A stretch of DNA of 64,000 nt. Source: Bacteroides mediterraneensis. GTDB taxonomy: Bacteria > Bacteroidota > Bacteroidia > Bacteroidales > Bacteroidaceae. The position numbers and the translations under genes were made by a program. The DNA lies in NCBI RefSeq assembly GCF_016900355.1, contig NZ_JACJKA010000001.1, forward strand, positions 186,001 to 250,000. The letters run 5' to 3'. Below the pieces are notes generated by a model. That model searched no databases, was not told the DNA's origin, and saw nothing but the letters and a program-made list of their open reading frames with translations. Below, one piece after another: positions 7,832 to 32,602 of the stretch; the stretch's first letter is position 1, and each line of letters begins with the position of its first letter.

Positions 7832-7963
7832 AAACGCCTTTGCGTTCTTCCCCAAACGCCCTTACGTTTTACTTCAAACGCAAGTACATTTCAGGTAAAA
7901 CGCAAAGGCGTTTTATATTAAACGCAAGGACGTTTCAGTCCAAACGCTTCGTCGTTTTCCGAG
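7832..7963. repeat. Six-unit tandem array, exact 22-bp period, alternating AAACG/CGTTT half-sites
   Basis: AAACGC starts at 7832, 7854, 7876, 7898, 7920 and 7942, each exactly 22 bp from the last. In most units CGTTT (or a one-base variant) follows at unit position 12, so AAACG and CGTTT alternate every 11 bp in opposite orientation. The bases between half-sites differ from unit to unit. The array fills the gap between two convergent genes. Single units can form AAACGC...GCGTTT hairpins (units 1 and 4 best), so it may also work as a terminator. Confidence 0.92.
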
Positions 7964-7973
7964 AAGAGAAAAT

Positions 7974-9074
7974 TCACGACTTTGAGAGCCGTTTCAGTGC
8001 CAGATGATGTCCTGCCTGGGCAGCTTTCTTATACCAGAACATGGCCAGATGCAGGTCGGGAGCACCAGTCCAACCTTCTTCGTATCCTTGTCCAATCCGA
8101 TAAAAGGCATAAGGGTCGGACGAATGGCGATAAGCCTCGAAAGCCCGCGGCAACGAAACCGGCAACTGACCGCATCCCTTACGGTACAAATCGCCCAGAT
8201 TGACCGAAGCATAGGTCATATCGCCCTGCCGTACTGCTTCCTTGAACCAGAATTCAGCTTCATAGCCATCGGAATTTACGCCGACTCCTTCCTGATACAA
8301 GGTACCGATGTCGTTCAGCACCACTCCATCCACGCGAGTTCCTTCCCGGTATTCCTTTCCCAGTTCCAGCAACATGTCCACATCTTCCTGCGAAAAGCTT
8401 TCCCAGGCCTCCGTGCCGTCTGACTGCCAGGACTTGACACGGCCGATTGACACATGCTGAGGTACATCCACCTCCACATCCATGGCATACGCCAGGCTGT
8501 CGGCCATGAACTCCTCGCGGGTAGCCTCCGAAAGCCAGCCCTTTCGCAACAGATACTGAATATAGCCATAAATACGCGAAGTGGAAGAATGAAGGTTCAC
8601 CCCATATTGCTTCAACTGCTCCAACGAGACATAACAAATCCCTTCTTTCGGCAGTTCCAGATAGCAACGGGGGATGACCGAGAGCACCACCTTCAGGGAA
8701 GCAATTTCCTCCCCGATACAATCTTCTATCCACTGCGTTCCCAGACGTTCGTACACAGAATAAGACATTCCATCCTCTCCCGATACCAGTTTCGGGCTAT
8801 GTCCGTTCAGATACAACCCCAATGTATCAATCAGATAAGGAAAGAACTTGTAATCATCATAAGAAGCCAATCCGTCCATAGCCACCAACACCCGTCCCTT
8901 CTCGTCATCTGAAATGGCAAATGAAGTGGTAGAATATTCCGGACGATGAAAATAATACAGATTTTTTCCCTGATACGTGCCCTGAAGTGTCACCTTGATC
9001 GGCACCTCCAATTTGCGGATGAGTTCCTTCATACGAAAAGAACCCGACGCGTTCAGTTGAAAAGAAATTCGCAT
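7974..9074 (-). CDS. Sel1-repeat protein of unknown function
   Basis: The 366-residue protein starts at MRISFQLNASGSFRM, 14 bp after the mnmA stop; a longer in-frame start would overlap mnmA. The N-terminal two thirds are not recognised. The last 110 residues hold Sel1/TPR-like repeats, for example AEFWFKEAVRQGDMTYASVN, followed by AFEAYRHSSDPYAFYRIGQG and AMFWYKKAAQAGHHLALKRL. Sel1 repeats mediate protein contacts. No signal peptide is visible, so it is probably cytoplasmic. It is likely cotranscribed with mnmA. Confidence 0.75.
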   Translation of the reverse strand: MRISFQLNASGSFRMKELIRKLEVPIKVTLQGTYQGKNLYYFHRPEYSTTSFAISDDEKGRVLVAMDGLASYDDYKFFPYLIDTLGLYLNGHSPKLVSGEDGMSYSVYERLGTQWIEDCIGEEIASLKVVLSVIPRCYLELPKEGICYVSLEQLKQYGVNLHSSTSRIYGYIQYLLRKGWLSEATREEFMADSLAYAMDVEVDVPQHVSIGRVKSWQSDGTEAWESFSQEDVDMLLELGKEYREGTRVDGVVLNDIGTLYQEGVGVNSDGYEAEFWFKEAVRQGDMTYASVNLGDLYRKGCGQLPVSLPRAFEAYRHSSDPYAFYRIGQGYEEGWTGAPDLHLAMFWYKKAAQAGHHLALKRLSKS

Positions 9075-9088
9075 AGTCAGCCTTTCTG

Positions 9089-10159
9089 TTAAAAAAATTC
9101 CTTCGTTCTTATCTCGCCACTGCCGATGCACAGGCGAGCATCCTTGTCATAAATCACCCCGAACTGTCCAGGGGCTATCCCCTGTATCGGCTCCCTGCTG
9201 GACACCTGCAATCCGTTATCCGAGAAACGGATTATTCCAGTCTGAAAGGTATCCGTGTGGCGTATCTTGAAACAAATTTCAGTTTCCGGTTCTTTCCAAG
9301 GATTCAATGTAATGAAATGGAAGTCCTTCAGGTAAAAGGAATAGCCAAACTGCTTTTCTGTATCATAACCATGCGACACATAGATAATGTTTTCTTCTAC
9401 GTTCTTGCCTACCACGAACCATGGTCCACCTCCAAGGCCCAGCCCCTTTCGCTGGCCGATGGTATGGAACCAGTATCCGCGATGCTGCCCGATGATTTTC
9501 CCGGTCTCCAGTTCTACGACCGGTCCCGGCCGTTCGCCCAGAAAACGACGGATGAAATCACTGTAGTTTATCTTTCCCAGGAAACAGATACCCTGACTGT
9601 CCTTCCGTCTGGCGCTGGGCAAAGAAGCTTCGAGGGCCAATGCCCGTACTTCTTCTTTCCGCAAGTCACCCAACGGGAACATCAGCCGGGACACCTGCAG
9701 ATAATCAATCTGTGCCAGGAAGTCCGTCTGGTCCTTCACCGGGTCTTTGGCTGTTGCCAGCCACGTATGTCCATCTTCCACAAGTGTAGAAGCATAATGT
9801 CCTGTAGCTATCTTATCATAGTCATGTCCGGCCTTTTGGTCAAAACAACCGAACTTGATCAGTTTATTGCACATCACATCCGGATTGGGAGTGAGTCCAC
9901 GTCGTACCTTGTCTATCGTGTAGGCCACTACATTCTCCCAATATTCCTTCTGCAAATCGACGATATGAAACGGCAGTCCATACTTACGGGCAGTGGCAGA
10001 AGCCAGTTCTATATCCTCTTCTGCCGTACACGTCAGTTCCTCATCCGTATCCATCCCAATCTTTATGTAAAACAAGTCAGGTTTGTATCCTTGCTCACAC
10101 AACAGATGTACCGCTACCGCGCTGTCCACTCCTCCCGAAATCAATGCTGCTATTTTCAT
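9089..10159 (-). CDS. mnmA: tRNA-specific 2-thiouridylase MnmA
   Basis: The 356-residue product begins [20 protein letters not shown], the PP-loop ATP-binding motif. It contains [13 protein letters not shown] with the first catalytic cysteine, [10 protein letters not shown], and [17 protein letters not shown] with the second catalytic cysteine. MnmA adds sulfur to U34 of tRNA-Lys, -Glu and -Gln. The ATG at 10159 gives the normal length; the upstream extension to 10201 does not fit the family. A -7 box (CAAATATA on the + strand, 10179-10186) lies just upstream. Confidence 0.95.
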
Positions 10160-10229
10160 GTCTGTTCTTTTTTGGCGGCAAATATACCACTCACCATCCA
10201 AATGCCCAATACCCTTTTCAAGGTATATC

Positions 10230-10829
10230 TCACTTCAAAGCCTGGAACTGTTCAATGAGAGACGTAATGTTTGCCGTAAACAAACGGGCCGAAATAGCCA
10301 GCAAGATGATGCCGAAAAATTTACGAATCACATAGATTCCACCTTTTCCCAGCATCCGTTCGATGCGGTCGGTCAGTTTCAACACAATATAGACCCATAC
10401 CATATTCAATATCAGCGCCAGTACAATGTTAATTGGCGCATATTCCGCCCGCAACGACAGCAGAGTGGTAAATGCACCCGCACCTGCCAGCAAAGGGAAC
10501 ACCAGAGGCACCAGCGTGGCCTCTTTGATAGGGCCTGTATTCTTGAAAATCTCGATATCCAGAATCATTTCCAGCGACATCAAAAAGATGACAAACGCAC
10601 CTGCCACCGCAAACGAAGCGATGTCTACCTGAAACAAGCGCAGCATCATATCGCCGGCATAGAAAAATCCCAATAGAAGGACAAAAGCGATAAGGGTAGC
10701 CTTCGGCGCATTCACCGGCCTTCCTTTTTGCTTCAAATCCAATATAATAGGGATAGAACCAATAATGTCAATCACGGCAAAAAGAACGATGAAGGCGCTC
10801 AAAAACTGTTGAAAATTAAATCCAATCAT
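10230..10829 (-). CDS. MarC family (UPF0056) integral membrane protein
   Basis: The 199-residue protein is almost entirely hydrophobic, with about six membrane segments, and has the family features [16 protein letters not shown] near the N-terminus and [14 protein letters not shown] in the middle. MarC proteins lie in the inner membrane; their transport role is not established and the old link to multiple antibiotic resistance is disputed. A -7 box (CAAAGTTA on the + strand, 10852-10859) precedes the start. It is followed by mnmA on the same strand with its own promoter in between. Confidence 0.88.
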
Positions 10830-10967
10830 TGTTATATTCCAATTACTTTTGCAAAGTTATCATTTTTTCATACACTTGCAAGAATCCACAAACATTATCA
10901 GACCGTAAGAAAGGATAAAAAAGATAAAACCTATCAGAAAGGAACTGCTACAGTACAGAAATATACT

Positions 10968-11003
10968 TAACTTTGTATGTTAAAAGATAACTTAATAAAG
11001 TTA
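10968..11003 (+). promoter_or_regulatory. Promoter -7 box and two dyads upstream of the Crp-family gene
   Basis: TAACTTTG (10968-10975) matches the Bacteroidetes -7 box; no good TTTG lies 19-21 nt upstream. It overlaps the dyad TTAAC/GTTAA (10967-10983). A second dyad, TAACTT-AATA-AAGTTA (10988-11003), has the 6-4-6 layout of Crp/Fnr operators and ends 7 bp before the start codon, so autoregulation is plausible. Confidence 0.5.
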
Positions 11004-11010
11004 ACGAGAG

Positions 11011-11697
11011 ATGGAATTGACAATGTACGATAAGCTTTTACAGCTCCCTCTGTTTCAAGGAATGTCGAAATTCGACTTCACCGACATTCTGGAAAAAGTA
11101 AAAATTCACTTCAATAAATATGAACCTGGAAGCTGCGTGGTAAAACAGGATAGTCCGTGCGACCAACTTATTTTCGTCCTCGACGGAGATGTACAGATAG
11201 AATCCAACGACCCGTCCCACAAATATACCTTGTGGGAAAATTTTAAAAGTCCGAACGTCATTGAGCCCTACTCCCTGTTTGGTATGCGTACGTATTACAC
11301 GGCCTCCTATACGGCACTGACTGAAGTCAACACGCTTCACATTGAGAAATCTTATATCCTCAACGAGTTGTGCCGCTACGAAGTGTTCAACCTGAACTAC
11401 CTGAACATGCTGAGCAACCGGGGACAAGTAATCTATAACAAGCTGTGGAATGCCCATATCGGGAAGACACGCGATAAAATCATCAACTTCCTTTTGCTGC
11501 GCTGCATGACACCCTACGGCCCCAAGAAACTGTCTATCCGTATGGAAGACCTGGCCCGGCTCATCGACGACACGCGCATCAACGTATCAAACGTGCTGAA
11601 CGACTTGCAGAAACAGGGCCTCATCCAACTGGGACGACGCACGTTCAGCATTCCTGAACTGAGAGATGTGGTTCAACTTTTGAACCAAAAAGAATAA
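11011..11697 (+). CDS. Crp/Fnr-family transcriptional regulator
   Basis: The 228-residue protein has an N-terminal cyclic-nucleotide-binding-like beta roll (about 15-125, with FVLDGDVQIE) and a C-terminal winged helix-turn-helix (about 165-215, with MEDLARLIDDTRINVSNVLNDLQ). The canonical cAMP-binding RxS sequence and the Fnr iron-sulfur cysteine set are not evident, so the signal is unknown. Its start could also be the ATG at 11023. The dyads in front of it suggest autoregulation. The M3 peptidase gene follows after 23 bp and may be in the same transcript. Confidence 0.85.
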   Translation: MELTMYDKLLQLPLFQGMSKFDFTDILEKVKIHFNKYEPGSCVVKQDSPCDQLIFVLDGDVQIESNDPSHKYTLWENFKSPNVIEPYSLFGMRTYYTASYTALTEVNTLHIEKSYILNELCRYEVFNLNYLNMLSNRGQVIYNKLWNAHIGKTRDKIINFLLLRCMTPYGPKKLSIRMEDLARLIDDTRINVSNVLNDLQKQGLIQLGRRTFSIPELRDVVQLLNQKE

Positions 11698-11720
11698 ATC
11701 TAACTTTTTACTGAAAACTT

Positions 11721-13760
11721 ATGAACAATCCATTTTTACAACCCTATCATACGCTGCATCACACCACTCCCTTCCCGCAAATACGGATAGAAGATTATGA
11801 ACCGGCCATCCGGGAAGGCATGCGACAGGAAGACGAAGAGATTCAGCAAATCACCGGCAATCCGGAACAACCGACCTTCCAGAACACGATTCTGGCACTG
11901 GAACACGCCGGAAAGACGCTCGACCGGGTAACTACCGTGTTGTTCAACCTGCTGAGTGCGGAGACCTGTGACGAACTGGAGGCCGTGGCCGAAAAGATGA
12001 CGCCTGAACTTTCGGCACACGCTAACAACATCAGCCTCAACGAAGCTTTGTTTGCTCGCGTAAAAGCAGTGTACGACCAAAGAGAAAACCTTTCACTGAC
12101 CCCGGAAGAACGCCAGCTGCTGGAAAAATCGTACGACGGATTCGTCCGTAACGGAGCGAATCTTTCGGAAGAAGACAAGGCTACCTTCCGCAAACTGAGC
12201 ATGGAACTGAGCAGCCTGACCCTGAAGTTCTCACAGAACCATCTGAAAGAAACAAACAGTTTCGAACTGGTGCTGACACAGGAAGACGACCTGGCCGGAC
12301 TGCCGGAAAGTGCTGTGGAAGCTGCTGCCCATACCGCTCACGAAAAAGGGAAAGACGGATGCTGGATCATCACCTTGCAGGCTCCCAGCTACGTGCCTTT
12401 CATGAAATACAGCGACAGAAGAGACCTGCGTAAACAGCTGTACATGGCCTACAACACCCAGTGCTGTCACGACAACGAATTCAACAACCTCGACATCGTA
12501 AAACGGTTGGTCAACCTGCGCATGGAACTGGCCCAGCTGTTGGGTTTCTCCAATTATGCGGAATATGTACTGAAAAAACGTATGGCCGAAAACAGCGAAC
12601 ATGTCTACAAACTGTTGAACGATTTGCTGGATGCCTATACACCAGTGGCCCAAAAGGAAGTAGAAGAAATCCGCACGCTGGCCCGCGAACTGGAAGGAAA
12701 CGACTTTGAACTGATGCCATGGGATTTCTCCTATTATGCCGAGAAACTGAAAAACCGGAAATTCAGTCTGGACGAAGAAGCCCTCCGCCCCTATTTTGAA
12801 CTGAGCCGCGTAAAAGCCGGCGTATTCGGACTGGCCACCCGCCTCTACGGCATCACCTTCAAGGAAAATAAAGAAATACCAGTCTACCATCCCGATGTAC
12901 AAGCCTACGAAGTGTTCGACCGCGACGGAAGCTTCCTGGCCGTGCTCTATACCGACTTCCATCCGCGAGAAGGCAAGCGTTCGGGTGCCTGGATGACCAG
13001 CTACAAGGAACAATGGATAGACGACGACGGCACCAACAGTCGCCCGCACGTCTCCGTGACCATGAATTTCACCAAGCCCACGAAAGACAAGCCGGCCTTG
13101 CTGACTTTCTCGGAAGTCAACACCTTCCTGCACGAATTCGGCCATGCCTTGCACGGTATGTTTGCCAATACGCGCTTCCAAAGCATGAGCGGCACGAACG
13201 TATATTGGGATTTTGTGGAACTTCCGTCACAAATCATGGAAAACTTTGCCATAGAAAAAGAATTTTTAAATACATTCGCATGTCACTACCAGACAGGAGA
13301 GCCCATTCCGGCAGAACTGGTCCAGCGCATTGTAGACGCCTCGAACTTCAACGTGGCCTACGCTTGCTTGCGCCAAGTCAGCTTCGGACTGCTCGACATG
13401 GCCTGGTATACCCGCCAGACTCCGTTTGAAGGAGATGTGAAAGCATACGAAAAAGCGTCCTGGCAACGCACCCAACTGCTGCCACAGCTGGACGACACTT
13501 GCATGAGCGTACAGTTCGGTCACATCATGTCGGGAGGTTACTCTGCCGGATACTACAGCTACAAATGGGCGGAAGTGCTGGATGCCGATGCGTTTTCCGT
13601 ATTCAAGGAAAAAGGCATCTTCAATCCGGAAACGGCACGCTCCTTCCGCGAAAATATTCTGTCGAAAGGGGGTACCGAACACCCGATGACGCTCTACAAG
13701 CGTTTCCGCGGACAGGAACCGACCATCGACGCATTGTTAAAAAGAAATGGAATAAAATGA
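11721..13760 (+). CDS. M3-family zinc metallopeptidase (Dcp/oligopeptidase A type)
   Basis: The 679-residue protein has the size and layout of M3 peptidases, with the zinc motif HEFGHALHGMF at about residue 470, the downstream VELPSQIMENF stretch carrying the third ligand, and the HIMSGGYSAGYYSYKW signature near the C-terminus. These enzymes cleave short peptides, either as peptidyl-dipeptidases or oligopeptidases. I see no signal peptide, which points to the cytoplasm. The stop codon overlaps the next start (ATGA), indicating translational coupling to the small lipoprotein. Confidence 0.93.
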   Translation: MNNPFLQPYHTLHHTTPFPQIRIEDYEPAIREGMRQEDEEIQQITGNPEQPTFQNTILALEHAGKTLDRVTTVLFNLLSAETCDELEAVAEKMTPELSAHANNISLNEALFARVKAVYDQRENLSLTPEERQLLEKSYDGFVRNGANLSEEDKATFRKLSMELSSLTLKFSQNHLKETNSFELVLTQEDDLAGLPESAVEAAAHTAHEKGKDGCWIITLQAPSYVPFMKYSDRRDLRKQLYMAYNTQCCHDNEFNNLDIVKRLVNLRMELAQLLGFSNYAEYVLKKRMAENSEHVYKLLNDLLDAYTPVAQKEVEEIRTLARELEGNDFELMPWDFSYYAEKLKNRKFSLDEEALRPYFELSRVKAGVFGLATRLYGITFKENKEIPVYHPDVQAYEVFDRDGSFLAVLYTDFHPREGKRSGAWMTSYKEQWIDDDGTNSRPHVSVTMNFTKPTKDKPALLTFSEVNTFLHEFGHALHGMFANTRFQSMSGTNVYWDFVELPSQIMENFAIEKEFLNTFACHYQTGEPIPAELVQRIVDASNFNVAYACLRQVSFGLLDMAWYTRQTPFEGDVKAYEKASWQRTQLLPQLDDTCMSVQFGHIMSGGYSAGYYSYKWAEVLDADAFSVFKEKGIFNPETARSFRENILSKGGTEHPMTLYKRFRGQEPTIDALLKRNGIK

Positions 13761-14245: not shown

Positions 14246-14256
14246 GCTATAGCATT

Positions 14257-14691: not shown

Positions 14692-14696
14692 AAATT

Positions 14697-19803: not shown

Positions 19804-19889
19804 GGGCAAATACCAGAGTGGCCAAATGGGGCAGACTGTAAATCTGCTGGCTTACGCCTTCGGTGGTTCGAATCCATCTTTGCCCACCA
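19804..19889 (+). tRNA. tRNA-Tyr (GTA), copy 1
   Basis: The acceptor stem GGGCAAA pairs with TTTGCCC. The anticodon loop CTGTAAA carries GTA, and there is a long class II variable arm and a normal T-arm (GGTTCGAATCC). CCA is encoded at 19887-19889. Confidence 0.97.
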
Positions 19890-19894
19890 AATTT

Positions 19895-19967
19895 GCGGAA
19901 GTAGCTCAGTTGATAGAGCATTAGCCTTCCAAGCTGAGGGTCGCGGGTTTGAGTCCCGTCTTCCGCT
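19895..19967 (+). tRNA. tRNA-Gly (TCC), copy 1
   Basis: The acceptor GCGGAAG pairs with CTTCCGC. The anticodon loop CTTCCAA carries TCC. The discriminator base is T and CCA is not encoded. It lies 5 bp after tRNA-Tyr. Confidence 0.96.
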
Positions 19968-19988
19968 CTTTTTTGAAATTCTTCTATC

Positions 19989-20071
19989 GGGCAAATACCA
20001 GAGTGGCCAAATGGGGCAGACTGTAAATCTGCTGGCTTACGCCTTCGGTGGTTCGAATCCATCTTTGCCCA
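19989..20071 (+). tRNA. tRNA-Tyr (GTA), copy 2
   Basis: The mature sequence is identical to copy 1, but the bases after the discriminator are CCG instead of CCA, so the tail must be added by the CCA-adding enzyme. It begins 185 bp after copy 1. Confidence 0.96.
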
Positions 20072-20081
20072 CCGCAAATTT

Positions 20082-20154
20082 GCGGAAGTAGCTCAGTTGA
20101 TAGAGCATTAGCCTTCCAAGCTGAGGGTCGCGGGTTTGAGTCCCGTCTTCCGCT
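20082..20154 (+). tRNA. tRNA-Gly (TCC), copy 2
   Basis: Identical to copy 1 and 187 bp away, it completes the tandem duplication of the Tyr-Gly unit. A Rho-independent terminator follows directly. Confidence 0.96.
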
Positions 20155-24522: not shown

Positions 24523-25719
24523 ATGAAAAAATACTTACTGATCTGCATTTACTTCCTGTTTGCTATAATGGGGAATGCACAAGAGTCTTTGCAAGATACC
24601 GTGGCCGCCAAACCGCTGACCGCCAAAGAGCTCAAGAAAAAGAAGAAAGCCGAACGTAACTTTCACTATAATATATTGGGAGGGCCCAGCTATACCCCTG
24701 ACTTCGGACTGTTAGTGGGCGGAAGTGCCCTGATGACATTCCGGATGAACCCGAAAGACACCACCATGCGGCGTTCGGTCATACCGGCCGCTCTGGCTTT
24801 TATGTTCAACGGGGGATTGAATCTGGTGGTCAAACCTCAACTTTTCTTCCAGAACGACCGTTTCCGTATCTTCGGACAGTTCTCGTTTAAAAACACCCGT
24901 GAAAATTTCTATGGCGTGGGCTACAGCACCAACAAGAATTATGTACGAAGCGACTCTACCAGCCAGTACCGCTACAGCGGCATCCAGATTAATCCTTGGT
25001 TCCTGTTCCGGCTGGGCGAAAGCAACTTCTTTGCCGGCCCGCAGATTGACATCACCTACGACCACATCATGGATCCTGCCAAATACCTGGTGGAACAACC
25101 CGACTACAAACGGGCAGGAGGTACTGCCGATGGCTACAAAGACTTTAGTTCGGGTATCGGCTTCCTGCTGACCTATGATACGCGTGATGTACCGGCCAAC
25201 CCGTACAAAGGACTGTATTTCGACCTGCGGGGACTGATGTACGAAAAGTTCCTGGGAAGCAATACCAGCTTCTACCGTCTGGAACTGGACTACCGGCAAT
25301 ACAAGCTGGTGGGAAAGCGGAAAGTGCTGGCCTGGACCGTGCAGAGCAAACATTCCTTCGGACACAACCTGCCCCTGAACAAATACGTATTGAGCGGCAC
25401 ACCCTTCGACCTGCGAGGCTACTACATGGGACAATACCGTGACAAGTCGTCGCACGTGGCACTGGCTGAATACCGCCAAATGTTCAACACCGACCAAAGC
25501 AACTGGATCAAGAAGGTCATCAACCGATTGGGCTTCGTAGCCTGGGGCGGATGTGGCTTCATGGGCCCGACACCCGGAAAGATTGAAGGGGTACTTCCGA
25601 ATGCCGGACTGGGCCTCCGCATCGAGGTACAGCCACGTATGAACGTACGTCTGGATTTAGGACGTGACTTCACCAACCGTCAGAACCTGTTTTATTTCAA
25701 CATGACCGAGGCGTTCTGA
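24523..25719 (+). CDS. BamA/TamA-like outer-membrane beta-barrel protein
   Basis: The 398-residue protein has a signal peptide (MKKYLLICIYFLFAIMGNAQ) and then mostly alternating beta strands. It matches the barrel half of the Omp85/surface-antigen family: ILGGPSYTPDFGLLVGG at the first strand, LLTYDTRDVPANPYKGLYFD, SGTPFDLRGYYMGQYRDKS containing the lid-lock region, and a terminal Phe for recognition by the BAM complex. No POTRA domains precede it, so it is a barrel-only member and probably not BamA itself. Function is unknown. Confidence 0.85.
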   Translation: MKKYLLICIYFLFAIMGNAQESLQDTVAAKPLTAKELKKKKKAERNFHYNILGGPSYTPDFGLLVGGSALMTFRMNPKDTTMRRSVIPAALAFMFNGGLNLVVKPQLFFQNDRFRIFGQFSFKNTRENFYGVGYSTNKNYVRSDSTSQYRYSGIQINPWFLFRLGESNFFAGPQIDITYDHIMDPAKYLVEQPDYKRAGGTADGYKDFSSGIGFLLTYDTRDVPANPYKGLYFDLRGLMYEKFLGSNTSFYRLELDYRQYKLVGKRKVLAWTVQSKHSFGHNLPLNKYVLSGTPFDLRGYYMGQYRDKSSHVALAEYRQMFNTDQSNWIKKVINRLGFVAWGGCGFMGPTPGKIEGVLPNAGLGLRIEVQPRMNVRLDLGRDFTNRQNLFYFNMTEAF

Positions 25720-25767
25720 AAAACGCCCCGGCAAATTCTCCCTTGTATATCAGCACTTTTTCTGTCC

Positions 25768-25880
25768 CTCACTATGGAATATAAAAACCACACTGTAAAA
25801 TACATATTCCGCAGTGTGGGATACCTATTTCACAGTGTGGTACAGAGAATTCTCCGATACATTTTCCGGTATATACCGGG
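25768..25880. repeat. About 21-bp-period array of CAC-AGT-GTG type units plus two perfect palindromes
   Basis: Four related units are centred near 25772 (CACTATGG, degenerate), 25793 (CACACTGT), 25815 (CGCAGTGTGG) and 25835 (CACAGTGTGG), with spacings of 21, 22 and 20 bp. TAC-rich linkers (ATACATATTCC, ATACCTATTTC) also repeat. Two exact palindromes follow: GAGAATTCTC (25845-25854) and CCGGTATATACCGG (25866-25879). The array lies between two convergent genes. Confidence 0.75.
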
Positions 25881-25922: not shown

Positions 25923-27329
25923 TCAGAAGCAGCTGGAGCCGTCAAAACAGTGGGTGCAGACCTTGCACTTCGGCAGCCCGATGGCTTCAATCAAGATTTC
26001 CAGGGTATTGAATTTCAGTGAAGTCAGTCCGAAACGGGCCCGGATACGCTCTACCAGTTCCTTGTATTCCGGCGAATCGGTGGTAGCATACTTGTCAAGC
26101 TTGGCATTTTCGTCTCCTTCAATTTCCTTGATGATGCGGCGGGTAATCAGTTCCATGTCACTCTTGGAAGAAGTGAAACCGATGAAGGGACAACCGTAAA
26201 TCAACGGCGGACAAGCAATGCGCATGTGTACCTCCTTGGCTCCGTAATCGTAGAGTACGTTCACGTTGTCACGCAGCTGGGTGCCACGCACGATAGAGTC
26301 ATCGCAGAACAGCAAGCGCTTTCCCTGAAGCATGGCCCGGTTGGGAATCAGCTTCATCTTGGCCACCAGCGAACGCATGCTCTGGTTGCTCGGCGTGAAA
26401 CTACGAGGCCAGGTAGGAGTATATTTGGCAATGGCCCGGTGATAAGGCACTCCTTTTCCTTCCGCATACCCCAATGCCATTCCTACACCCGAGTCAGGAA
26501 TGCCACACACGCAATCCACTTCGGAATCGTCGTGCTGTCCCATCTTATAGCCACTCATGAAACGCACTTCTTCCACATTTTTCCCTTCATAGCAGGAAAC
26601 CGGGAAACCGTAGTACACCCAAAGGAACGAACATATCTGCATCTTCTCGTTCGGCTGGCGGAGTTGCTCAATTCCGTCGGCACGCATGCGCAGAATCTCG
26701 CCCGGCCCCACATAGCGGTCAATCTCAAAATCCAGGTTCGGCAAACTGCTCGACTCACTGGTAGCCGCATATGCCCCGTTCTTCCGGCCAATGACAATCG
26801 GCGTACGGCCCCATTTGTCACGAGCCACGATAATCCCGTCTTCCGTCAGAATCAACATGGAACACGAACCTTTGATTTTTTGGAACACATTCTCAATGCC
26901 CTCCACGAAATCTTTTCCCTGCACAATGAGCAGGGCCACCAATTCTGTAGGGTTGGTCTTTCCCATACTCATTTCAGAGAAATGCATATTGCAGTCCAGC
27001 AGTTCCTTCACCAGCTGGTCGATATTGTTGATTTTTGCGACCGTGACAATGGCAAAACGCCCCAAATGAGAATTGATCATGATAGGCTGAGGATCTGTAT
27101 CACTGATGATCCCTATCCCCGACTTGCCTTTGAACTTAGGAAGTTCATCCTCAAACTTTGTCCGAAAATAAGTACTTTCCAGGTTATGAATTGAACGTAT
27201 GAAACCTTCGCCCTCAGCGTATGTCGCCATACCGGCGCGTTTCGTACCTAAATGTGAGTTGTAATCCGTACCGTAAAATAAATCGGTTACGCATTCAGCC
27301 TTAGAGACTGTTCCGAAAAAACCTCCCAT
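25923..27329 (-). CDS. Amidophosphoribosyltransferase-like protein lacking the N-terminal Cys nucleophile
   Basis: The 468-residue protein has an Ntn glutamine-amidotransferase-like domain (about 1-230) and a phosphoribosyltransferase domain (about 250-420) with the intact PRPP loop LLFCDDSIVRGTQL. Normal PurF enzymes begin MCGI, with Cys acting as nucleophile; this one begins MGGFFGTVSK, with Gly at that position. Other glutaminase-domain residues such as the RDKWGRTPIVIG region remain. The C-terminus is Cys-rich (KCKVCTHCFDGSSCF). It may use ammonia, act on another amine, or regulate; canonical glutamine-dependent PurF activity is unlikely. A -7 box (CAAAAATA on the + strand) is at 27376-27383. 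Confidence 0.85.
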   Translation of the reverse strand: MGGFFGTVSKAECVTDLFYGTDYNSHLGTKRAGMATYAEGEGFIRSIHNLESTYFRTKFEDELPKFKGKSGIGIISDTDPQPIMINSHLGRFAIVTVAKINNIDQLVKELLDCNMHFSEMSMGKTNPTELVALLIVQGKDFVEGIENVFQKIKGSCSMLILTEDGIIVARDKWGRTPIVIGRKNGAYAATSESSSLPNLDFEIDRYVGPGEILRMRADGIEQLRQPNEKMQICSFLWVYYGFPVSCYEGKNVEEVRFMSGYKMGQHDDSEVDCVCGIPDSGVGMALGYAEGKGVPYHRAIAKYTPTWPRSFTPSNQSMRSLVAKMKLIPNRAMLQGKRLLFCDDSIVRGTQLRDNVNVLYDYGAKEVHMRIACPPLIYGCPFIGFTSSKSDMELITRRIIKEIEGDENAKLDKYATTDSPEYKELVERIRARFGLTSLKFNTLEILIEAIGLPKCKVCTHCFDGSSCF

Positions 27330-27575: not shown

Positions 27576-27593
27576 TCCCTTCACTACAGACAT

Positions 27594-27624
27594 AAAAAAA
27601 AGTTGGACAAAACTGTCCAACTTT
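27594..27624 (-). terminator. Terminator of the SRP RNA/tRNA-Thr operon
   Basis: An 11-bp perfect stem pairs AAAGTTGGACA (27599-27609) with TGTCCAACTTT (27614-27624). Read on the minus strand it is followed by a run of eight T's, 5 bp after the last tRNA-Thr. Confidence 0.88.
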
Positions 27625-27628
27625 CCTG

Positions 27629-27702
27629 AGCCTCTTGTCGGATTCGAACCAACGACCCCGAGATTACAAATCACGTGCTCTGGCCAACTGAGCTAAAGAG
27701 GC
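27629..27702 (-). tRNA. tRNA-Thr (TGT), downstream copy
   Basis: On the minus strand the acceptor GCCTCTT pairs with AAGAGGC. The anticodon loop TTTGTAA carries TGT, and the T-arm is GTTGGTTCGAATCCGAC. One T-T mismatch lies in the anticodon stem. CCA is not encoded. Confidence 0.95.
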
Positions 27703-27727
27703 AATCACCAAATATGTCCTTTTTTCG

Positions 27728-27801
27728 AGCCTCTTGTCGGATTCGAACCAACGACCCCGAGATTACAAATCACGTGCTCTGGCCAACTGAGCTAAAGAGG
27801 C
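27728..27801 (-). tRNA. tRNA-Thr (TGT), upstream copy
   Basis: This copy is identical in sequence to the tRNA at 27629-27702, 99 bp away on the same strand. Together they form a tandem pair behind the probable SRP RNA. Confidence 0.95.
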
Positions 27802-27805
27802 GGGT

Positions 27806-27901
27806 GGGTAAGCTTACCATATCGCGCCGCTACAACCAACTACCTTTGCTGCGATCAAGCCCTGGAGGATTCGAAGGGAGCTGGCCGTATGGGACTTACC
27901 C
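27806..27901 (-). ncRNA. ffs: Probable signal recognition particle RNA (small type)
   Basis: On the minus strand, a closing stem GGGTAAG...CTTACCC encloses an elongated hairpin with CCATA/TATGG and CCAGCT/AGTTGG pairs, and the distal part contains CAGGGCTTGATCGCAGCAAAGG. The GCAGCAAAGG element resembles the conserved 3' side of the SRP RNA internal loop (E. coli GGAAGCAGCC). Length (about 96 nt) fits bacterial 4.5S RNA. The tetraloop differs from the usual GGAA type, so the call rests on structure and the GCAGC motif. A promoter about 55 nt upstream suggests a longer primary transcript. Confidence 0.65.
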
Positions 27902-27956
27902 GTATTCAACATGTCATCGAGCATCACGCGGAAGGCGTATTTCTCGATTGCGGGTG

Positions 27957-27986
27957 CAAAGGTAGGCAAATTTTCTGAATATACAA
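27957..27986 (-). promoter_or_regulatory. Promoter of the SRP RNA/tRNA-Thr operon
   Basis: On the minus strand TACCTTTG (27957-27964) matches the -7 box. A TTG (27984-27986) lies 19 nt upstream in place of the full TTTG. Confidence 0.65.
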
Positions 27987-28100
27987 TACCTGCGCAAAAA
28001 AAATTGGCCAAAATGGGAAAGATTCATGATTTTTCAATCTTTTCTATACCACAGCTCACCGAAAAAGACTACTTTTGTAACCACTAACAAACTTGACGAT

Positions 28101-28631
28101 ATGACAGCAGAAAGACCAACTACCCTACAGGAATACGCCATGCGGTTCGGAACTTATATGGGATTGTTCTGGATTTTCAAATTCATTTTCCTTCCCATCG
28201 GATTTACCATTCCGCTGCTCCAGCTGCTTTTCATCCTGATGACGATTTTCGTTCCTGTACTGGGCTTCATCTATGCCCGCCGTTACCGTAACCAGTACCG
28301 TGAAGGTTACCTGTCCTTCACTCAGGCTTTCGGTTTCTGCTTTCTGATGTATCTCTTCGCCTCTATCCTGACCGCACTGGCTCACTATGTATATTTCCGC
28401 TTCATCGATCAGGGATACCTGCTGAACACGTATCTGGACCAGCTGGACAATATAAAGGACAGTGTGAGCGGCGACATGAAGGTTTCCGTGGAACAACTCA
28501 TCAGCAGCTTCGAGGTGATTTCGTCACTCACCCCCTTGCAAATGACATTCCAGCTGCTCTCACAGAATTTCTTCTACGGAATCCTGCTGTCTATCCCGAC
28601 AGCGTTGCTGGTCATGAGAAAAAAGAATTAA
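28101..28631 (+). CDS. DUF4199-like membrane protein
   Basis: Starting at MTAERPTTLQEYAMRFG, the 176-residue protein has about four membrane helices: GLFWIFKFIFLPIGF, LLQLLFILMTIFVPVLGFIY, FGFCFLMYLFASILTALAHY and a C-terminal FYGILLSIPTALLVM, with a polar loop before the last. This matches DUF4199, a Bacteroidetes family of unknown function often found before a glycosyltransferase. A -7 box TACTTTTG is at 28070-28077. It is the first gene of a six-gene operon ending with apbE. Confidence 0.78.
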   Translation: MTAERPTTLQEYAMRFGTYMGLFWIFKFIFLPIGFTIPLLQLLFILMTIFVPVLGFIYARRYRNQYREGYLSFTQAFGFCFLMYLFASILTALAHYVYFRFIDQGYLLNTYLDQLDNIKDSVSGDMKVSVEQLISSFEVISSLTPLQMTFQLLSQNFFYGILLSIPTALLVMRKKN

Positions 28632-28649
28632 TCGCTTAGAAATAAATAT

Positions 28650-29600
28650 ATGGATATATCTGTAGTCGTACCTCTCTATAATGAAGAGGAATCCTTACCT
28701 GAATTGTATGCCTGGATTGAGCGCGTGATGTACGCCCACCACTTTACCTACGAAGTCATTTTCGTGAACGATGGCAGCACGGACCACTCCTGGCAGGTCA
28801 TCGAAGAACTCAGCCGGAAATCGAAAGAAGTGAAAGGCATCAAGTTCCGCCGGAATTATGGTAAATCACCAGCCCTGTACTGTGGATTCGAAAAGGCTGA
28901 AGGCGACGTGGTCATCACCATGGATGCGGACTTACAGGACAGCCCGGACGAAATTCCGGAACTGTACCGCATGATTACAGAAGAAGGATACGACCTGGTT
29001 TCAGGCTGGAAACAGAAACGCTACGACCCGCTGTCGAAGACCATTCCAACCAAACTGTTCAACGCCACGGCACGTGCCGTATCGGGCATTCACAACCTGC
29101 ACGATTTCAACTGCGGACTGAAGGCTTACCGCAAGGACGTGGTGAAGAATATCGAAGTGTATGGCGAAATGCACCGGTATATCCCCTATTTGGCTAAAAA
29201 TGCCGGATTCACCCGCATCGGCGAAAAGGTGGTACACCATCAGGCCCGCAAATACGGAAAGACCAAGTTTGGCTTGAACCGCTTCGTGAACGGCTATCTG
29301 GACTTGCTGTCGCTCTGGTTCCTCTCTACTTTTGGCGTGAAACCGATGCACATCTTCGGTTTTTTAGGTTCCATCATGTTCCTGTTAGGATTCATCGCCG
29401 TCATCGTGGTGGGAGCCAACAAGCTGTACGACATGTATTGTGGTAATCCTTACCGCCTGGTGACCGAAAGTCCCTATTTCTACCTGGCACTGACTACCAT
29501 GATTTTAGGTACCCAGCTTTTCCTGGCCGGATTCATCGGTGAACTGATTGCGCGTAATTCGCCGGAAAGAAACAAATACCAAATTGAGAAAGAACTTTGA
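28650..29600 (+). CDS. Family 2 glycosyltransferase (polyprenyl-phosphate glycosyltransferase type)
   Basis: The 316-residue protein has a GT-A catalytic domain (about 1-215) with VVPLYNEEESLPELY at the N-terminus, FVNDGSTDHSW, and TMDADLQDSPDE carrying the DxD metal site, followed by two C-terminal membrane helices (about 235-258 and 268-295). This is the DPM1/GtrB layout: it transfers a sugar from a nucleotide to undecaprenyl phosphate at the inner membrane. Sugar identity is unknown. It starts 18 bp after the DUF4199 gene. Confidence 0.92.
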   Translation: MDISVVVPLYNEEESLPELYAWIERVMYAHHFTYEVIFVNDGSTDHSWQVIEELSRKSKEVKGIKFRRNYGKSPALYCGFEKAEGDVVITMDADLQDSPDEIPELYRMITEEGYDLVSGWKQKRYDPLSKTIPTKLFNATARAVSGIHNLHDFNCGLKAYRKDVVKNIEVYGEMHRYIPYLAKNAGFTRIGEKVVHHQARKYGKTKFGLNRFVNGYLDLLSLWFLSTFGVKPMHIFGFLGSIMFLLGFIAVIVVGANKLYDMYCGNPYRLVTESPYFYLALTTMILGTQLFLAGFIGELIARNSPERNKYQIEKEL

Positions 29601-29602
29601 CG

Positions 29603-30103
29603 ATGAAGAAACTACCGATTGTATGCAGCCTGCTCCTGTTGGCAGCCTTCTCCTTCTTCCCGGCCTGCGAGGTGGAGAACTGTCCGCCCAACGCCTTGGC
29701 GTATGCGCAGTTCAATTTCGTAGACCAATATGGAAGATCGGTGGAATACACTGACACGCTGACCGTAATCGGGCAGCTACAGACGGCCGATACCCTTATC
29801 TATGACACGCTGATTAACAAATCGACAAAAACGAGTACCCTCAGCCTGCCACTCAGCTACGGAGATCAGACCCGCTTCATCTTCCAATACGGTAACCGGC
29901 AGCGGGACATCATTACGGTCAATCACCGCAACATTCCTTATTTCATCAACTTGGACTGCGGCACCATGATGTTCTACGAGATAACCAGTGCGGAAACGAC
30001 TACCCGCATGCTCGATTCACTCGTCATCACCAATCCGAACATAGACAATTATGAGAAAGAGAATTTCAAGATATATTTCACGGTTACTGCTGCTAATGAG
30101 TAG
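29603..30103 (+). CDS. Lipoprotein of unknown function (DUF6452-like)
   Basis: The 166-residue product begins MKKLPIVCSLLLLAAFSFFP and has a lipobox ending at Cys (FFPACEVENCPP). The mature part is a small beta-rich domain (YGDQTRFIFQYGNRQRDIIT, NIPYFINLDCGTMMFYEI). I match it tentatively to DUF6452, which in my recollection sits next to DUF6048 in Bacteroides. It starts 2 bp after the glycosyltransferase stop and overlaps the next gene by 53 bp. Confidence 0.72.
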   Translation: MKKLPIVCSLLLLAAFSFFPACEVENCPPNALAYAQFNFVDQYGRSVEYTDTLTVIGQLQTADTLIYDTLINKSTKTSTLSLPLSYGDQTRFIFQYGNRQRDIITVNHRNIPYFINLDCGTMMFYEITSAETTTRMLDSLVITNPNIDNYEKENFKIYFTVTAANE

Positions 30104-30797
30104 CCTCCTTCTCTGTGGCTCCCTGTGGGCACAGCGGCCGGGAGCCCACAAGGCACAGCCGGTACAGATACAGAAGGAAGAAGCGAAAAAAACAGAACCG
30201 ACGGAAAACATACCTCTTTATCAGGGAATGAGCATCGGAGTGGAAATTGCCGGAATCGGAAGCTACCTGTTAGGAAGTGACATTCTGAACAGTGAGGTAG
30301 CTCTACAGGCCAACCTGAAAAACCGCTTCCTCCCTGTGGTGGAAGTGGGATACGGAAAAGCAGATGCCATCAACGACGCCAACAACCTGCACTACAAAAC
30401 CTCTGCCCCCTATTTCCGAATAGGAATGGATTACAACGTGTTTTACAAGAAAACACACTTGCCGGGCTATCTGTACGTGGGACTACGCTATGGCATGACC
30501 TCGTTCAGCTACGATGTGGACGGCCCATCCATGACTGACCCGAACTATGGAGGAGAAATCTCCTACCCCTTCTCTTATTCCGGCTTGAAGAGCAATGCCA
30601 GCTGGCTGGAAGGCGTACTCGGACTCAAGGTGAAAATCTACAAAGGTTTTTGCATGGGTTGGAGCGTGAGATACAAAATGAGGATGAGCATCAAGAATCA
30701 TGAAAATTCCGTTCCATGGTACGTGCCCGGATTCGGAAAGAATGCCAGCAGCAGTTTCAACCTGACGTATAATCTCATTTACAACTTGCCCTTCTGA
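30051..30797 (+). CDS. Outer-membrane beta-barrel protein (DUF6048-like)
   Basis: The 248-residue protein has a signal peptide (LLLLMSSLLLCGSLWAQ) and mostly amphipathic beta strands, such as MSIGVEIAGIGSYLL, FRIGMDYNVFYKK and YLYVGLRYGMTSFSY, ending with aromatic Phe. This indicates a small outer-membrane barrel. The DUF6048 name is tentative. It overlaps the preceding lipoprotein gene by 53 bp in another frame, so the two products are translationally linked and probably act together in the outer membrane. Confidence 0.75.
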   Translation: MRKRISRYISRLLLLMSSLLLCGSLWAQRPGAHKAQPVQIQKEEAKKTEPTENIPLYQGMSIGVEIAGIGSYLLGSDILNSEVALQANLKNRFLPVVEVGYGKADAINDANNLHYKTSAPYFRIGMDYNVFYKKTHLPGYLYVGLRYGMTSFSYDVDGPSMTDPNYGGEISYPFSYSGLKSNASWLEGVLGLKVKIYKGFCMGWSVRYKMRMSIKNHENSVPWYVPGFGKNASSSFNLTYNLIYNLPF

Positions 30798-30802
30798 TTT
30801 AC

Positions 30803-31375
30803 ATGAACTTACTTGAAACAATTTTGTTGTCGGTCAGTCTGGCCATTGACTGCTTTACGGTATCCGTCACCAGCGGCATCATCCTGCATCGCATCCGCTG
30901 GGGTACTTTTCTGAGAATGGCCTTTTTCTTCGGACTTTTCCAGGCTTTGATGCCTTTCATCGGATGGCTGGGTGCCAGCCGCTTCCAGCACCTCATCGAG
31001 GACTACGACCATTGGATTGCATTCGGTCTGCTGGCCTTTTTAGGTATCCGGATGATACGGGCACAGTTCAAGGAAGAAGAAACAGCCTCGTTCAACCCCA
31101 CCAGCCTGAAGGTGACACTGGCCTTGGCGGTAGCTACCAGCATCGACGCCCTGGCCATCGGTATTTCCTTCGCCTTTGCGGGACTCAAACAGATAGAGGA
31201 TCTGACCCTGCCGCTAACCAGCATCGGACTGGCTTCTTTCATTCTTTCACTGGTGGGAAGCCTCATCGGAGTGTTCTTCGGCAAACGCTTCCACCTGCGG
31301 GTAGAACTTTTCGGAGGACTGGTACTGATTGGTATCGGCGTGAAGATTTTAATAGAACATTTATTCCTACAATAA
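30803..31375 (+). CDS. mntP: Manganese efflux pump MntP
   Basis: The 190-residue protein has six predicted membrane helices and the two MntP repeat signatures: LSVSLAIDCFTVSVTSG in the first half and ALAVATSIDALAIGISFAF in the second, with the conserved Asp residues expected to bind the metal. It exports Mn2+ across the inner membrane. No yybP-ykoY manganese riboswitch is seen; it is cotranscribed with its neighbours (5 bp upstream, 3 bp downstream). Confidence 0.94.
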   Translation: MNLLETILLSVSLAIDCFTVSVTSGIILHRIRWGTFLRMAFFFGLFQALMPFIGWLGASRFQHLIEDYDHWIAFGLLAFLGIRMIRAQFKEEETASFNPTSLKVTLALAVATSIDALAIGISFAFAGLKQIEDLTLPLTSIGLASFILSLVGSLIGVFFGKRFHLRVELFGGLVLIGIGVKILIEHLFLQ

Positions 31376-31378
31376 CTC

Positions 31379-32392
31379 ATGAGCAAAAACAATTTGAAAT
31401 GGCAGCTGCCGTTCCTCGTCATCCTTATCGTCGGAACGGTGCTGATTCTGAGAAAGCAAGCGCCTTACCAGACCGACGAAGGCCTGGTGTTCGGCACCGT
31501 GTATAAAATCACTTACCAGTCGTCGGAAAACCTGAAAAACGAGATTGAAAAAGAACTGCAGAAGGTGGACAACTCCCTGTCACCGTTCAACAAACAGTCG
31601 GTCATCACGCGTATCAACCAGAATACCGACTTGCATACCGACAGTATGTTCGTCTATGTGTTTAATCTGGCAAAAGAAGTCTCTCATGACACTGGAAAGG
31701 CGTACGACGTGACCGTGGCTCCGTTAGTCAATGCCTGGGGCTTCGGATTCAAACACTCCCAATTCCCGGATTCCCTGACCGTCGACAGCTTGCGTCAGTT
31801 TGTGGGTATCGACAAAATCCACCTCAACGCAGACGGCGAAGTAGTCAAATCCGACCCGCGCATGATGCTCGACTTCAGCTCCATAGCCAAAGGATTCGGC
31901 GTGGATTGTGTGGCCCGTCTGTTCGACCGGAAAGGCATCAAGAACTACATGATTGACATTGGCGGCGAACTGGTCATGAAAGGACAGAATGCCAAGATGG
32001 AGACCTGGCGCATCGGAGTCAACAAACCGATTGACGACTCTTTATCGGTCAACCAGGAACTGCAAACCATACTGGAAATTACCGATGCCGGTATGGCCAC
32101 TTCGGGCAATTACCGCAACTTCTATTATAAAGATGGAAAGAAATATGCGCACACCATCGACCCGCGGACAGGCTATCCAGTGCAGCACAACATTCTTTCT
32201 TCTACCGTCATTGCCAAGAACTGTGCCACTGCCGATGCCTACGCCACCGCCTTTATGGTATTGGGATTGGATTCAGCCAAAGCAGTCTGTGATTCTCATC
32301 CGGAACTGGATGCCTATTTCATCTATACGGACAAGAACGGAAAACTGCAAACCTATTCCACAGCAGGCATGAAGAAATACATGCGGAACTAA
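31379..32392 (+). CDS. apbE: FAD:protein FMN transferase (ApbE)
   Basis: The 337-residue protein has an N-terminal membrane/signal segment (about 9-24) and the ApbE domain: FGTVYKITYQ, PFNKQSVITRIN, DFSSIAKGFGVD, YMIDIGGELVMKG, ATSGNYRNFYYKDGKKYAHT followed by IDPRTGYPV. It attaches FMN covalently to Thr/Ser in periplasmic flavoproteins such as NqrB/NqrC and RnfG. It is the last gene of the 28101-32392 operon; a hairpin follows. Confidence 0.95.
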   Translation: MSKNNLKWQLPFLVILIVGTVLILRKQAPYQTDEGLVFGTVYKITYQSSENLKNEIEKELQKVDNSLSPFNKQSVITRINQNTDLHTDSMFVYVFNLAKEVSHDTGKAYDVTVAPLVNAWGFGFKHSQFPDSLTVDSLRQFVGIDKIHLNADGEVVKSDPRMMLDFSSIAKGFGVDCVARLFDRKGIKNYMIDIGGELVMKGQNAKMETWRIGVNKPIDDSLSVNQELQTILEITDAGMATSGNYRNFYYKDGKKYAHTIDPRTGYPVQHNILSSTVIAKNCATADAYATAFMVLGLDSAKAVCDSHPELDAYFIYTDKNGKLQTYSTAGMKKYMRN

Positions 32393-32418
32393 AAAAGTCC
32401 TTGTACAGGGTAAGACCT

Positions 32419-32466
32419 AAAAATGCCGGAACATACCTCCTCGTATGCTCCGGCATTTTCTATTTT
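32419..32466 (+). terminator. Terminator after apbE
   Basis: AAAATGCCGGAACATAC pairs with GTATGCTCCGGCATTTT (32443-32459), with one mismatch in a 17-bp stem, and is followed by CTATTTTAT. Confidence 0.85.
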
Positions 32467-32514
32467 ATCAGAATACTCTCTTCGGGCAAAAGCATCTGTC
32501 TATTTTCTTTTCTC

Positions 32515-32602
32515 AGTACTCCTTAGGAAGTACTGCAGTACTGCCGTGGAAGTACCAGAGTACTGATAGGAAAGTACTGGAGTACTGCCGTGGAAGTACT
32601 GA
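32515..32602. repeat. Four-unit tandem array, exact 22-bp period, paired AGTACT palindromes
   Basis: AGTACT (one copy AGTACC) starts at 32515, 32529, 32537, 32551, 32559, 32573, 32581 and 32595: spacings alternate exactly 14 and 8 bp, giving four 22-bp units. Units 2 and 4 also share the linker GCCGTGGA. The array lies beyond the apbE terminator and 36 bp from the end of the convergent EamA gene. Confidence 0.92.

What the first reader, a model, noticed from the sequence alone, without database searches (positions are those of the whole stretch)
7832..32602. A class of motif-diverse, 22-bp-period palindrome arrays at convergent gene ends
Three arrays in one 25-kb stretch share period (about 22 bp, two helical turns), unit palindromicity and location (between converging 3' ends), yet each uses its own motif. 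This points to a common mechanism of origin or function (nucleoid protein scaffolding, transcription-collision control, or a mobile or amplifying palindrome) rather than one binding protein. I do not know of a described system with this signature.
Basis: inference. Interest (0 to 1): 0.78.

Follow-up and report, generated by a model that had tools for sequence, protein, structure and literature searches.

The report
Families of 22-bp palindrome arrays, Phocaeicola
A gut bacterium's chromosome is dotted with short stacks of mirror-image DNA sites placed two helix turns apart, in several sequence versions, which look like landing strips for unknown DNA-binding proteins rather than chance repeats.

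Summary
The three arrays lie where stated, between convergent genes: A (7832-7957, six 22-bp units), B (25758-25849, four 21-bp units), C (32514-32601, four 22-bp units). They belong to a genome-wide class. In 836 kb of this Phocaeicola genome, lag 22 (with 21, 42, 44) is almost the only intergenic repeat period. A 1.087-Mb sample gave 44 arrays in five motif families, A-E; relatives carry other motifs at the same period.

In family A the arms are conserved as sequence, not as pairing (185 one-sided, 7 two-sided changes in 608 units). Spacers differ as much as random ones, yet in the own genome 98 of 99 next-unit distances are 22 bp. This fits phased double-stranded sites for dimeric DNA-binding proteins; hairpin, REP/RAYT and slippage readings fit less well. 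Family B differs: a 92-bp dispersed element resembling a MITE.

The binding protein is unknown. In one relative B avoids the terminus half of the chromosome and A favours it: the boldest lead.

The parts
7832..7957 (.). Array A: six 16-bp palindromic units AAACGY-N4-RCGTTT with 6-bp spacers, 22-bp period
25758..25849 (.). Element B: 92 bp, four units of TTYCACASTGTGRRA type at 21-bp period, ends TTTTCTGT/ACAGAGAA as terminal inverted repeat
32514..32601 (.). Array C: four units CAGTACT-N8-AGTACTG, 22-bp period
7123..7776 (+). HAD-like hydrolase gene ending 55 bp before array A
7974..9032 (-). Sel1-repeat protein gene, stop 16 bp from array A on the other side
24523..25719 (+). Omp85-domain protein gene, converging on element B
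25923..27329 (-). GATase_7-domain protein gene, converging on element B
31379..32392 (+). ApbE-family gene, converging on array C
32420..32459 (+). Ordinary hairpin (17-bp arms) after the ApbE gene, separate from array C; a similar hairpin is present in relative G007, which lacks array C
   Evidence: (I3)
32638..33510 (-). EamA-like transporter gene, converging on array C

Best explanation
The arrays (families A, C, D, probably E and the relatives' motifs) are stacks of double-stranded DNA sites, each a palindrome read by a dimeric sequence-specific protein. They are held two helical turns apart so that four to seven dimers sit on one face of the helix and bind cooperatively, forming a short nucleoprotein filament in intergenic spacers. 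Different motifs mean related binders with diverged recognition, or different proteins under the same geometric rule. Likely effect (inferred): a local roadblock or boundary between transcription units. Family A often ends in T-runs on both sides and so could also end transcription in both directions. Family B has the same geometry but spreads as a MITE-like 92-bp element. Shown: phasing, motif families, conservation of sequence without pairing, lineage turnover. Inferred: the proteins, cooperativity and effect.
For: Period: in own contigs taken without regard to the arrays, next-unit distances up to 100 bp are 22 in 98 of 99 for A (44 in 1), D 22 in 14 of 16 (44 in 2), C 22 in 11 of 11, B 21 in 15 of 17 (42 in 2). 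Pooled with pattern-selected loci of other species A gives 22 in 392 of 412, 21 in 14, 44 in 5, 43 in 1 (those loci had been found by a pattern with one 22-bp step). Spacers have drifted to random identity (own 0.337 adjacent against 0.345 random; pooled 0.353 against 0.351), so many substitutions but almost no length change. Arms: 185 one-sided, 7 two-sided changes (4 compensatory) in 608 A units; own only 41 and 1 in 128 units. Units were chosen by at least 9 of 12 motif matches, which disfavours two-sided changes a little; with a looser cut, 110 own A units give 100 one-sided, 17 two-sided, 6 compensatory. Pair 6-11: C-G 213, T-G 143, C-A 166, T-A 71, paired 0.470 against 0.512 expected. 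D: 75 one-sided, 8 two-sided (4 compensatory) in 40 units; C: 13 and 1 in 12. Complementary centres within an array are not enriched within species (61 against 63.6; 5-of-6 matches 139 against 165.7). Units of one array are no more alike than units of different arrays in a genome (identical centres 50 against 57.5), so these are not fresh slippage copies. Unit centre is RR/YY in 545 of 608 (302 expected), 4 perfect palindromes. Same period with other motifs in G001, G034 and G008.
Against: No binding protein is identified, and no gene family marks the flanks beyond six weakly similar pairs among 98 flanking genes. A arrays carry terminator-like ends: two or more extra T after the last unit in 66%, two or more A before the first in 52%, against 6% at inner units (own 16 and 17 of 23 against 2 of 104), and the window arrays fold far better than shuffles as RNA (z -5.0 to -9.1). 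Element B looks like dispersed copies, with 13 two-sided changes, all compensatory, against 95 one-sided. Arm conservation between own and G007 orthologues (29/308 against 44/145 differences) rests mostly on one A pair; the four B, D and E pairs show little contrast. Distribution is narrow: family A in 10 of 59 relatives, all among the 35 of the own genus, and in none of 394 other genomes sampled across the phylum, so the function cannot be essential to Bacteroidota.
Confidence: 0.6

Rival explanations
1. RNA hairpins: the arrays are bidirectional intrinsic terminators or 3' mRNA stabilisers made of stacked stem-loops, acting as transcripts.
For: T-runs at the outer ends of A arrays (66% and 52% against 6% inside); RNA folding z -5.0 to -9.1 for the three window arrays (on the minus strand array A gives a long stem followed by a run of U); 14-15 of 18 genes with an A array downstream have hairpin plus T-run once the array is counted, 3 of 18 before it; several A arrays lie close to stop codons.
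Against: No covariation in A arms, pair 6-11 not paired above chance; complementary centres not enriched, mirror-placed centres even less complementary than others (2.73 against 2.98, p=0.01); outer flanks 4.40 of 10 complementary against 4.24 shuffled (1.7 sd) and 3.35 against 3.39 further out; fixed 22-bp spacing is not needed for hairpins; most D arrays have T before and A after, the wrong way round for a terminator; array C sits behind a separate ordinary hairpin. Background detection of terminators is low (102-128 of 416 genes), so one search does not discriminate.
Confidence: 0.2
2. Selfish dispersal: the arrays are MITE-like or REP-like elements moved by a transposase, with no host function; the period reflects transposase binding.
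For: Family B: 28 elements of 92 bp, gapless, mean identity 0.855, with 8-bp terminal inverted repeats, lying in either orientation. Patchy abundance of families among species. Array C not found at the orthologous site in G007, G008 and G003. Two A arrays (C44:96424 and 137450) share about 43 bp of right flank.
Against: A, C and D show little or no homology in free columns beyond shuffled units (A 0.42 against 0.41, C 0.49 against 0.49, D 0.42 against 0.38; the D and A excess is 2-3 sd); I saw no clean target-site duplication in the sites aligned; no Y1_Tnp domain (PF01797) in own, G003, G007 or G008; no match for A in phages and plasmids, nor for B and D in plasmids. No autonomous partner was searched for beyond this.
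Confidence: 0.15
3. Non-functional minisatellites: tandem slippage products of short palindromes.
For: Whole-unit differences occur (own 4 units, G007 2 units at C22:348687 and C22:364126).
Against: Only 22/21-bp periods stand out among lags 12-59; units of one array are no more alike than units of different arrays; arms constant while spacers are random, with almost no length drift.
Confidence: 0.05

Closest known systems
BrickBuilt MITE/minisatellite of Porphyromonas gingivalis (Klein 2015, PMC4596501; abstract, sections 5 and 9 and a few passages seen)
   Same: Bacteroidales, dispersed intergenic tandem arrays of about two helical turns (23 nt), unit gain and loss between strains, 19 loci
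   Different: One family, 1-22.8 repeats, leader/tail flanks with TIRs, target-site duplications, up to 6% indels inside; no word beginning palindrom- or convergent in its text. Here several motif families, palindromic units, mostly 4-7 units, nearly indel-free; only B (and perhaps single cases of others) has TIR-like ends
REP/BIME palindromes (e.g. PMC3733652, passages seen)
   Same: Dispersed intergenic palindromes, sometimes clustered, in that paper mostly in unidirectional and convergent gaps
   Different: No PF01797 transposase in this genome or the array-rich relatives; no pairing constraint in A; GTAG/CGTC tags were not tested
Macrodomain site families such as MatP-matS, Noc and SlmA sites (recalled)
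   Same: Many dispersed palindromic sites with biased position relative to origin and terminus
   Different: Those are mostly single sites of one motif; here arrays of several motifs; no homologous protein was looked for; position bias rests on one relative
Plasmid iterons and parC-type centromeres (recalled)
   Same: Tandem sites about two turns apart bound by dimers on one face
   Different: Those lie at one replicon locus beside rep/par genes; here many dispersed chromosomal loci with no recurring neighbour gene

Membership tests
REP/BIME with RAYT | RAYT-type Y1_Tnp transposase (PF01797) in genomes with the repeats | tested here: not met
   0 in own, G003, G007, G008; 12 of 30 genomes searched have one
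REP/BIME with RAYT | hairpin-forming imperfect palindrome with pairing constraint | tested here: not met
   A arms change one-sidedly 185 times against 7 two-sided; B not clear
REP/BIME with RAYT | GTAG or CGTC tag at one end | not tested
   no tag search was run
MITE | homologous copies of fixed length with terminal inverted repeats | tested here: met
   family B only: 28 elements, 92 bp, 85.5% mean identity; A, C, D not or hardly
MITE | target-site duplication and clean empty site | tested here: inconclusive
   flanks too diverged at empty sites
BrickBuilt | 23-nt repeat with leader and tail segments | tested here: not met
   period 22/21; among flanks of the arrays only a few pairs are similar
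Intrinsic terminator | GC-rich hairpin followed by T-run | tested here: inconclusive
   A: T-runs at ends but no pairing constraint; D: mostly A-run instead; not discriminating
Described RNA family | Rfam match at gathering score | tested here: not met
   in the window only SRP RNA and tRNAs; families D and E are not in the window and were not scanned
Macrodomain site family | biased distribution around origin/terminus | tested here: inconclusive
   B gap 1.69 Mb p=0.0007, A enriched p=0.002 in G007, region bounds chosen after seeing the positions; contig segregation in own genome p=0.18
Macrodomain site family | dedicated binding protein | not tested

The most novel reading that the evidence does not exclude
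Phocaeicola chromosomes are organised by a repertoire of phased multi-site arrays, each family read by its own member of one protein family with a fixed two-turn geometry. Families are assigned to different chromosome regions (A around the terminus, B origin-proximal), so that the arrays act as address labels or boundaries for nucleoid layout. Arrays of different families can replace one another at the same slot.
Probability: 0.18. Interest if true: 0.87.

Novelty: new variant of a known kind. Interest (0 to 1): 0.63.

Why it matters
A set of repeats in which the helical period is kept while the motif is free points to a geometric rule rather than to one regulator. If these are cooperative binding arrays, they open the question of how Bacteroidota partition and insulate their chromosomes, for which I know of no MatP/SlmA-like system (recalled, not searched). 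They also give ready-made bait DNA to fish for the proteins, and natural experiments (slot swaps, two-unit losses, uneven abundance among species) to test function.

Tried and rejected
Whole-array hairpin: not supported for A. A pooled test over species seemed to show complementary centres ('other' group), but this vanished when shuffled within species. REP/RAYT: against it. Phage or plasmid origin: no match for A in phages and plasmids, none for B and D in plasmids; B, C, D against phages and C against plasmids were not run. Recurrent neighbour gene: six similar pairs among 98 flanking genes of 51 arrays, two of them adjacent genes; no larger group. Terminator replacement: inconclusive. Contig segregation of A and B in the own genome: not significant (its A list is what one search listed and is incomplete). 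First B alignment contained false hits and duplicate registers and was replaced. E counts at the loose threshold include false hits (reversed-sequence control 2 for E, 1 for A, 0 for B, C, D). Dropped rows: 8 of 52 own detections matched no family (some in-gene low-complexity repeats, one poor D-like array); 3 of 44 arrays had no placed spacer, 4 of 23 loci at one slot and 15 of 25 at the other had a weak anchor and were left out.
Full report
Setting. The window is C22:186001-250000 of a 3.53-Mb draft genome. Named genomes with the family-A repeats include Phocaeicola plebeius, Bacteroides mediterraneensis and Ca. Phocaeicola excrementigallinarum. G007, of the same genus, has a contig of 4,034,845 bp, the length of NZ_LT635783.1 (B. 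mediterraneensis). G008 shares a contig length with DWVR01000046.1 (Ca. P. excrementigallinarum). G011 has the size I recall for P. vulgatus ATCC 8482. The genus assignment, Phocaeicola, is inferred from this.

The three arrays. Array A has six units, C four, at 22 bp; B has four units at 21 bp. All three are between converging genes. The motif counts exceed all 100 shuffles for each pattern.

A class, not three cases. In 836 kb of the own genome I called 627 genes with a simple codon-usage caller and scanned intergenic regions for self-match at every lag from 12 to 59. Lag 22 stands out with its satellites 21, 42 and 44. The sequences sort into families: A AAACGY-N4-RCGTTT+N6; B TTYCACASTGTGRRA at 21; C CAGTACT-N8-AGTACTG; D ACGTTTCC-N6-GGAAACGT; E around CACGWWCGTG. 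After taking the whole of C22 (1.087 Mb in all) chaining of units gave 44 arrays: A 22, D 8, B 7, C 4, E 3. In this own sample the D, B and E arrays have four units, C three or four, A four to seven. The scan misses weak arrays such as the D array at C22:376010. Scaling to the genome would give about 140 or more (inference).

Placement. 41 of the 44 could be placed: 13 of 124 convergent gaps, 11 of 128 divergent, 17 of 564 tandem. Per net spacer length the convergent density is 7.4 per 10 kb against 3.1 and 2.9. Region-level Fisher tests of convergent against the rest give p=0.006 with all regions, then 0.011, 0.084, 0.137 and 0.016 with rising length filters. B and D lean to divergent gaps (7 of 14 against 4 of 27 for A, C, E; p=0.026).

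Distribution. The two-unit A pattern has 143 matches in the own genome and 0 with the reversed control. Of 59 relatives 10 have it, all among the 35 of the own genus; G003, G007 and G008 have 78-103, G028 16, the rest 1-4; none of 24 genomes of other families has it. Of 395 genomes across the phylum, the own one included, only the own genome has it. B has 41 and 37 matches in own and G007, 2 and 1 in G027 and G031. D has 57 and 40 in own and G007, a few in G001 and G034. C has 21 and 24 in own and G007, 4, 3 and 1 in G006, G033 and G008. Other species have their own motifs at the same period: in 180 kb of G001 GATGAAGGTACCTTCATC, CGAAGCAGGCTTCG, AAAACCRTAYGGTTTT and a D variant; in G034 AAACGAACGTTYGTTT; in G008 a sixth motif. 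In 180 kb of G011 there is one array at lag 22 and one at 21; 20 kb each of three genomes of other families gave none at these lags.

What is conserved. I collected 141 distinct A arrays with 608 units; about 80 of the source loci had been found by a pattern with one 22-bp step, so spacing is best judged on the own contigs. There, next-unit distances up to 100 bp are 22 in 98 of 99 for A and 44 in the other; pooled, 22 in 392, 21 in 14, 44 in 5 and 43 in 1 of 412. Spacers are as different as random ones. Arm positions are 92-100% constant (units were picked with at least 9 of 12 matches). Changes are one-sided 185 times and two-sided 7 times, 4 of them compensatory, and observed pairing equals that expected from independent columns; at pair 6-11 all four Y-R combinations occur. 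Own units alone give 41 one-sided and 1 two-sided change in 128 units, and a looser cut 100, 17 and 6 compensatory in 110. The unit centre is nearly always an RR/YY step (545 of 608), rarely a perfect palindrome (4). D and C show the same excess of one-sided changes on small numbers. Units inside one array are no more alike than units of other arrays of that genome (identical centres 50 against 57.5 expected), and complementary centres are not enriched (61 against 63.6). Outer flanks of A arrays are at most marginally complementary (4.40 against 4.24 of 10, 1.7 sd; 3.35 against 3.39 further out). This is what independently drifting protein sites under a phase constraint look like. It is not what hairpins or recent tandem copies look like.

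Against a purely protein-site view, A arrays end in extra T-runs (66%) or begin with A-runs (52%), against 6% at inner units (own 16 and 17 of 23 against 2 of 104), and the window arrays fold very well as RNA. A second role of A in transcription termination is plausible. D mostly has the reverse polarity of runs, so it is unlikely to share that role.

Family B is different. 28 elements align without gaps over 92 bp at 85.5% mean identity, spacers included, with TTCTCTGT/ACAGAGAA ends. Changes in mirror pairs are 95 one-sided and 13 two-sided, the 13 all compensatory, 12 of them at two pairs; the elements are related, so this is weak evidence for pairing. B is best called a MITE-like dispersed element built from the same geometry.

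Turnover. Own C22 and G007 3.0-3.4 Mb are syntenic, main blocks 84-97% identical. Of 247 shared intergenic regions, 5 hold the same family in both, 2 more keep about two units in G007, 2 hold different families (own A against G007 D; own D against G007 B), 2 are own only (A of the window, degraded in G007; C of the window, absent) and 1 is G007 only. The two different-family slots are unexpected if placement were independent (p 0.0025-0.012 depending on which regions count as having room; a test chosen after seeing them). At the D/B slot 15 other Phocaeicola genomes could be read. None has an array; 13 have 172-218 bp and two have 273 and 545 bp, while own and G007 have 418 and 408 bp with the array at about the same place. 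At the window's B site the six other genomes that could be read (83-196 bp) lack B. Array C of the window is not found in G007, G008 or G003.

Chromosome position. In G007, 20 listed B arrays leave a 1.69-Mb gap from 1.04 to 2.73 Mb (p=0.0007 against uniform; C and D show no such gap, p about 0.65). In the first 2.325 Mb, where the A listing runs without a break, 27 of 32 A arrays lie beyond 1.0 Mb (p=0.002), and A against B differs with p=0.0001, A against D with p=0.009 (positions). These bounds were set after seeing the positions. Sparse GC-skew samples put the origin near 3.8 Mb and the terminus near 2.0-2.6 Mb, with one sample at 0.1 Mb of the opposite sign, so B would avoid the terminus half and A favour it. 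Own contig C44, which maps to G007 1.1-1.3 Mb, has eight A arrays, one C and no B or D in the loose scan. A contig-level segregation test in the own genome is not significant (p=0.18). This is one lineage and a sparse skew profile, so a lead only.

What was not found. No Rfam family at the window arrays, no PF01797 domain in own, G003, G007, G008, no group of recurring flanking genes, no A, B or D match in plasmids and no A match in phages. Literature: searches gave the P. gingivalis BrickBuilt element (abstract, two sections and passages seen) and REP surveys (PMC3733652, passages seen; PMC2267715 searched for three terms without a hit) as nearest. Nothing in those listings describes motif-diverse 22-bp palindrome arrays; preprints and most subscription journals are not in that library.

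Verdict. The convergent-end rule is weak. The best-supported mechanism is phased double-stranded binding sites for unknown dimeric proteins, with A perhaps also terminating transcription and B spreading as a MITE-like element.

Noticed in passing
G007 C1 1.04-2.73 Mb: No listed B element lies in 1.69 Mb opposite the inferred origin, while A arrays are dense from 1.0 to 2.3 Mb.
   Followed up: partly
L315 and L314 (own C22:375860-376278): The same divergent slot holds a D array in the own genome and a B element in G007; 15 other genomes read there have no array.
   Followed up: partly
own C44:96424 and C44:137450: Two A arrays share most units plus about 43 bp of right flank, with the left flank unrelated: a possible copy event with one sharp edge.
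   Followed up: no
own C22, right of 299279, and C44, right of 60053: Another dispersed, self-inverted repeat of about 150 bp (93% identical) lies next to two A arrays.
   Followed up: no
G008 C72:5771-5854 (L258): A sixth 22-bp motif (GTGAACCATAT/GGTTCAC type) with TTCTATAGTCC/GGACTATAGAA ends.
   Followed up: partly
L095 3320 (Chryseobacterium taichungense) and L162 749 (Kaistella chaponensis): Four-unit family-A arrays at 22 bp in two genomes that I recall as Flavobacteriia.
   Followed up: no
window 27629-27908 and 19804-20154: Bacteroidales small SRP RNA beside two tRNA genes, and a four-tRNA cluster in which tRNA scores repeat in pairs.
   Followed up: no
L098 about 1819 and G011 about 99308: Other 21/22-bp repeats in related genomes that I did not assign to families A-F.
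   Followed up: no
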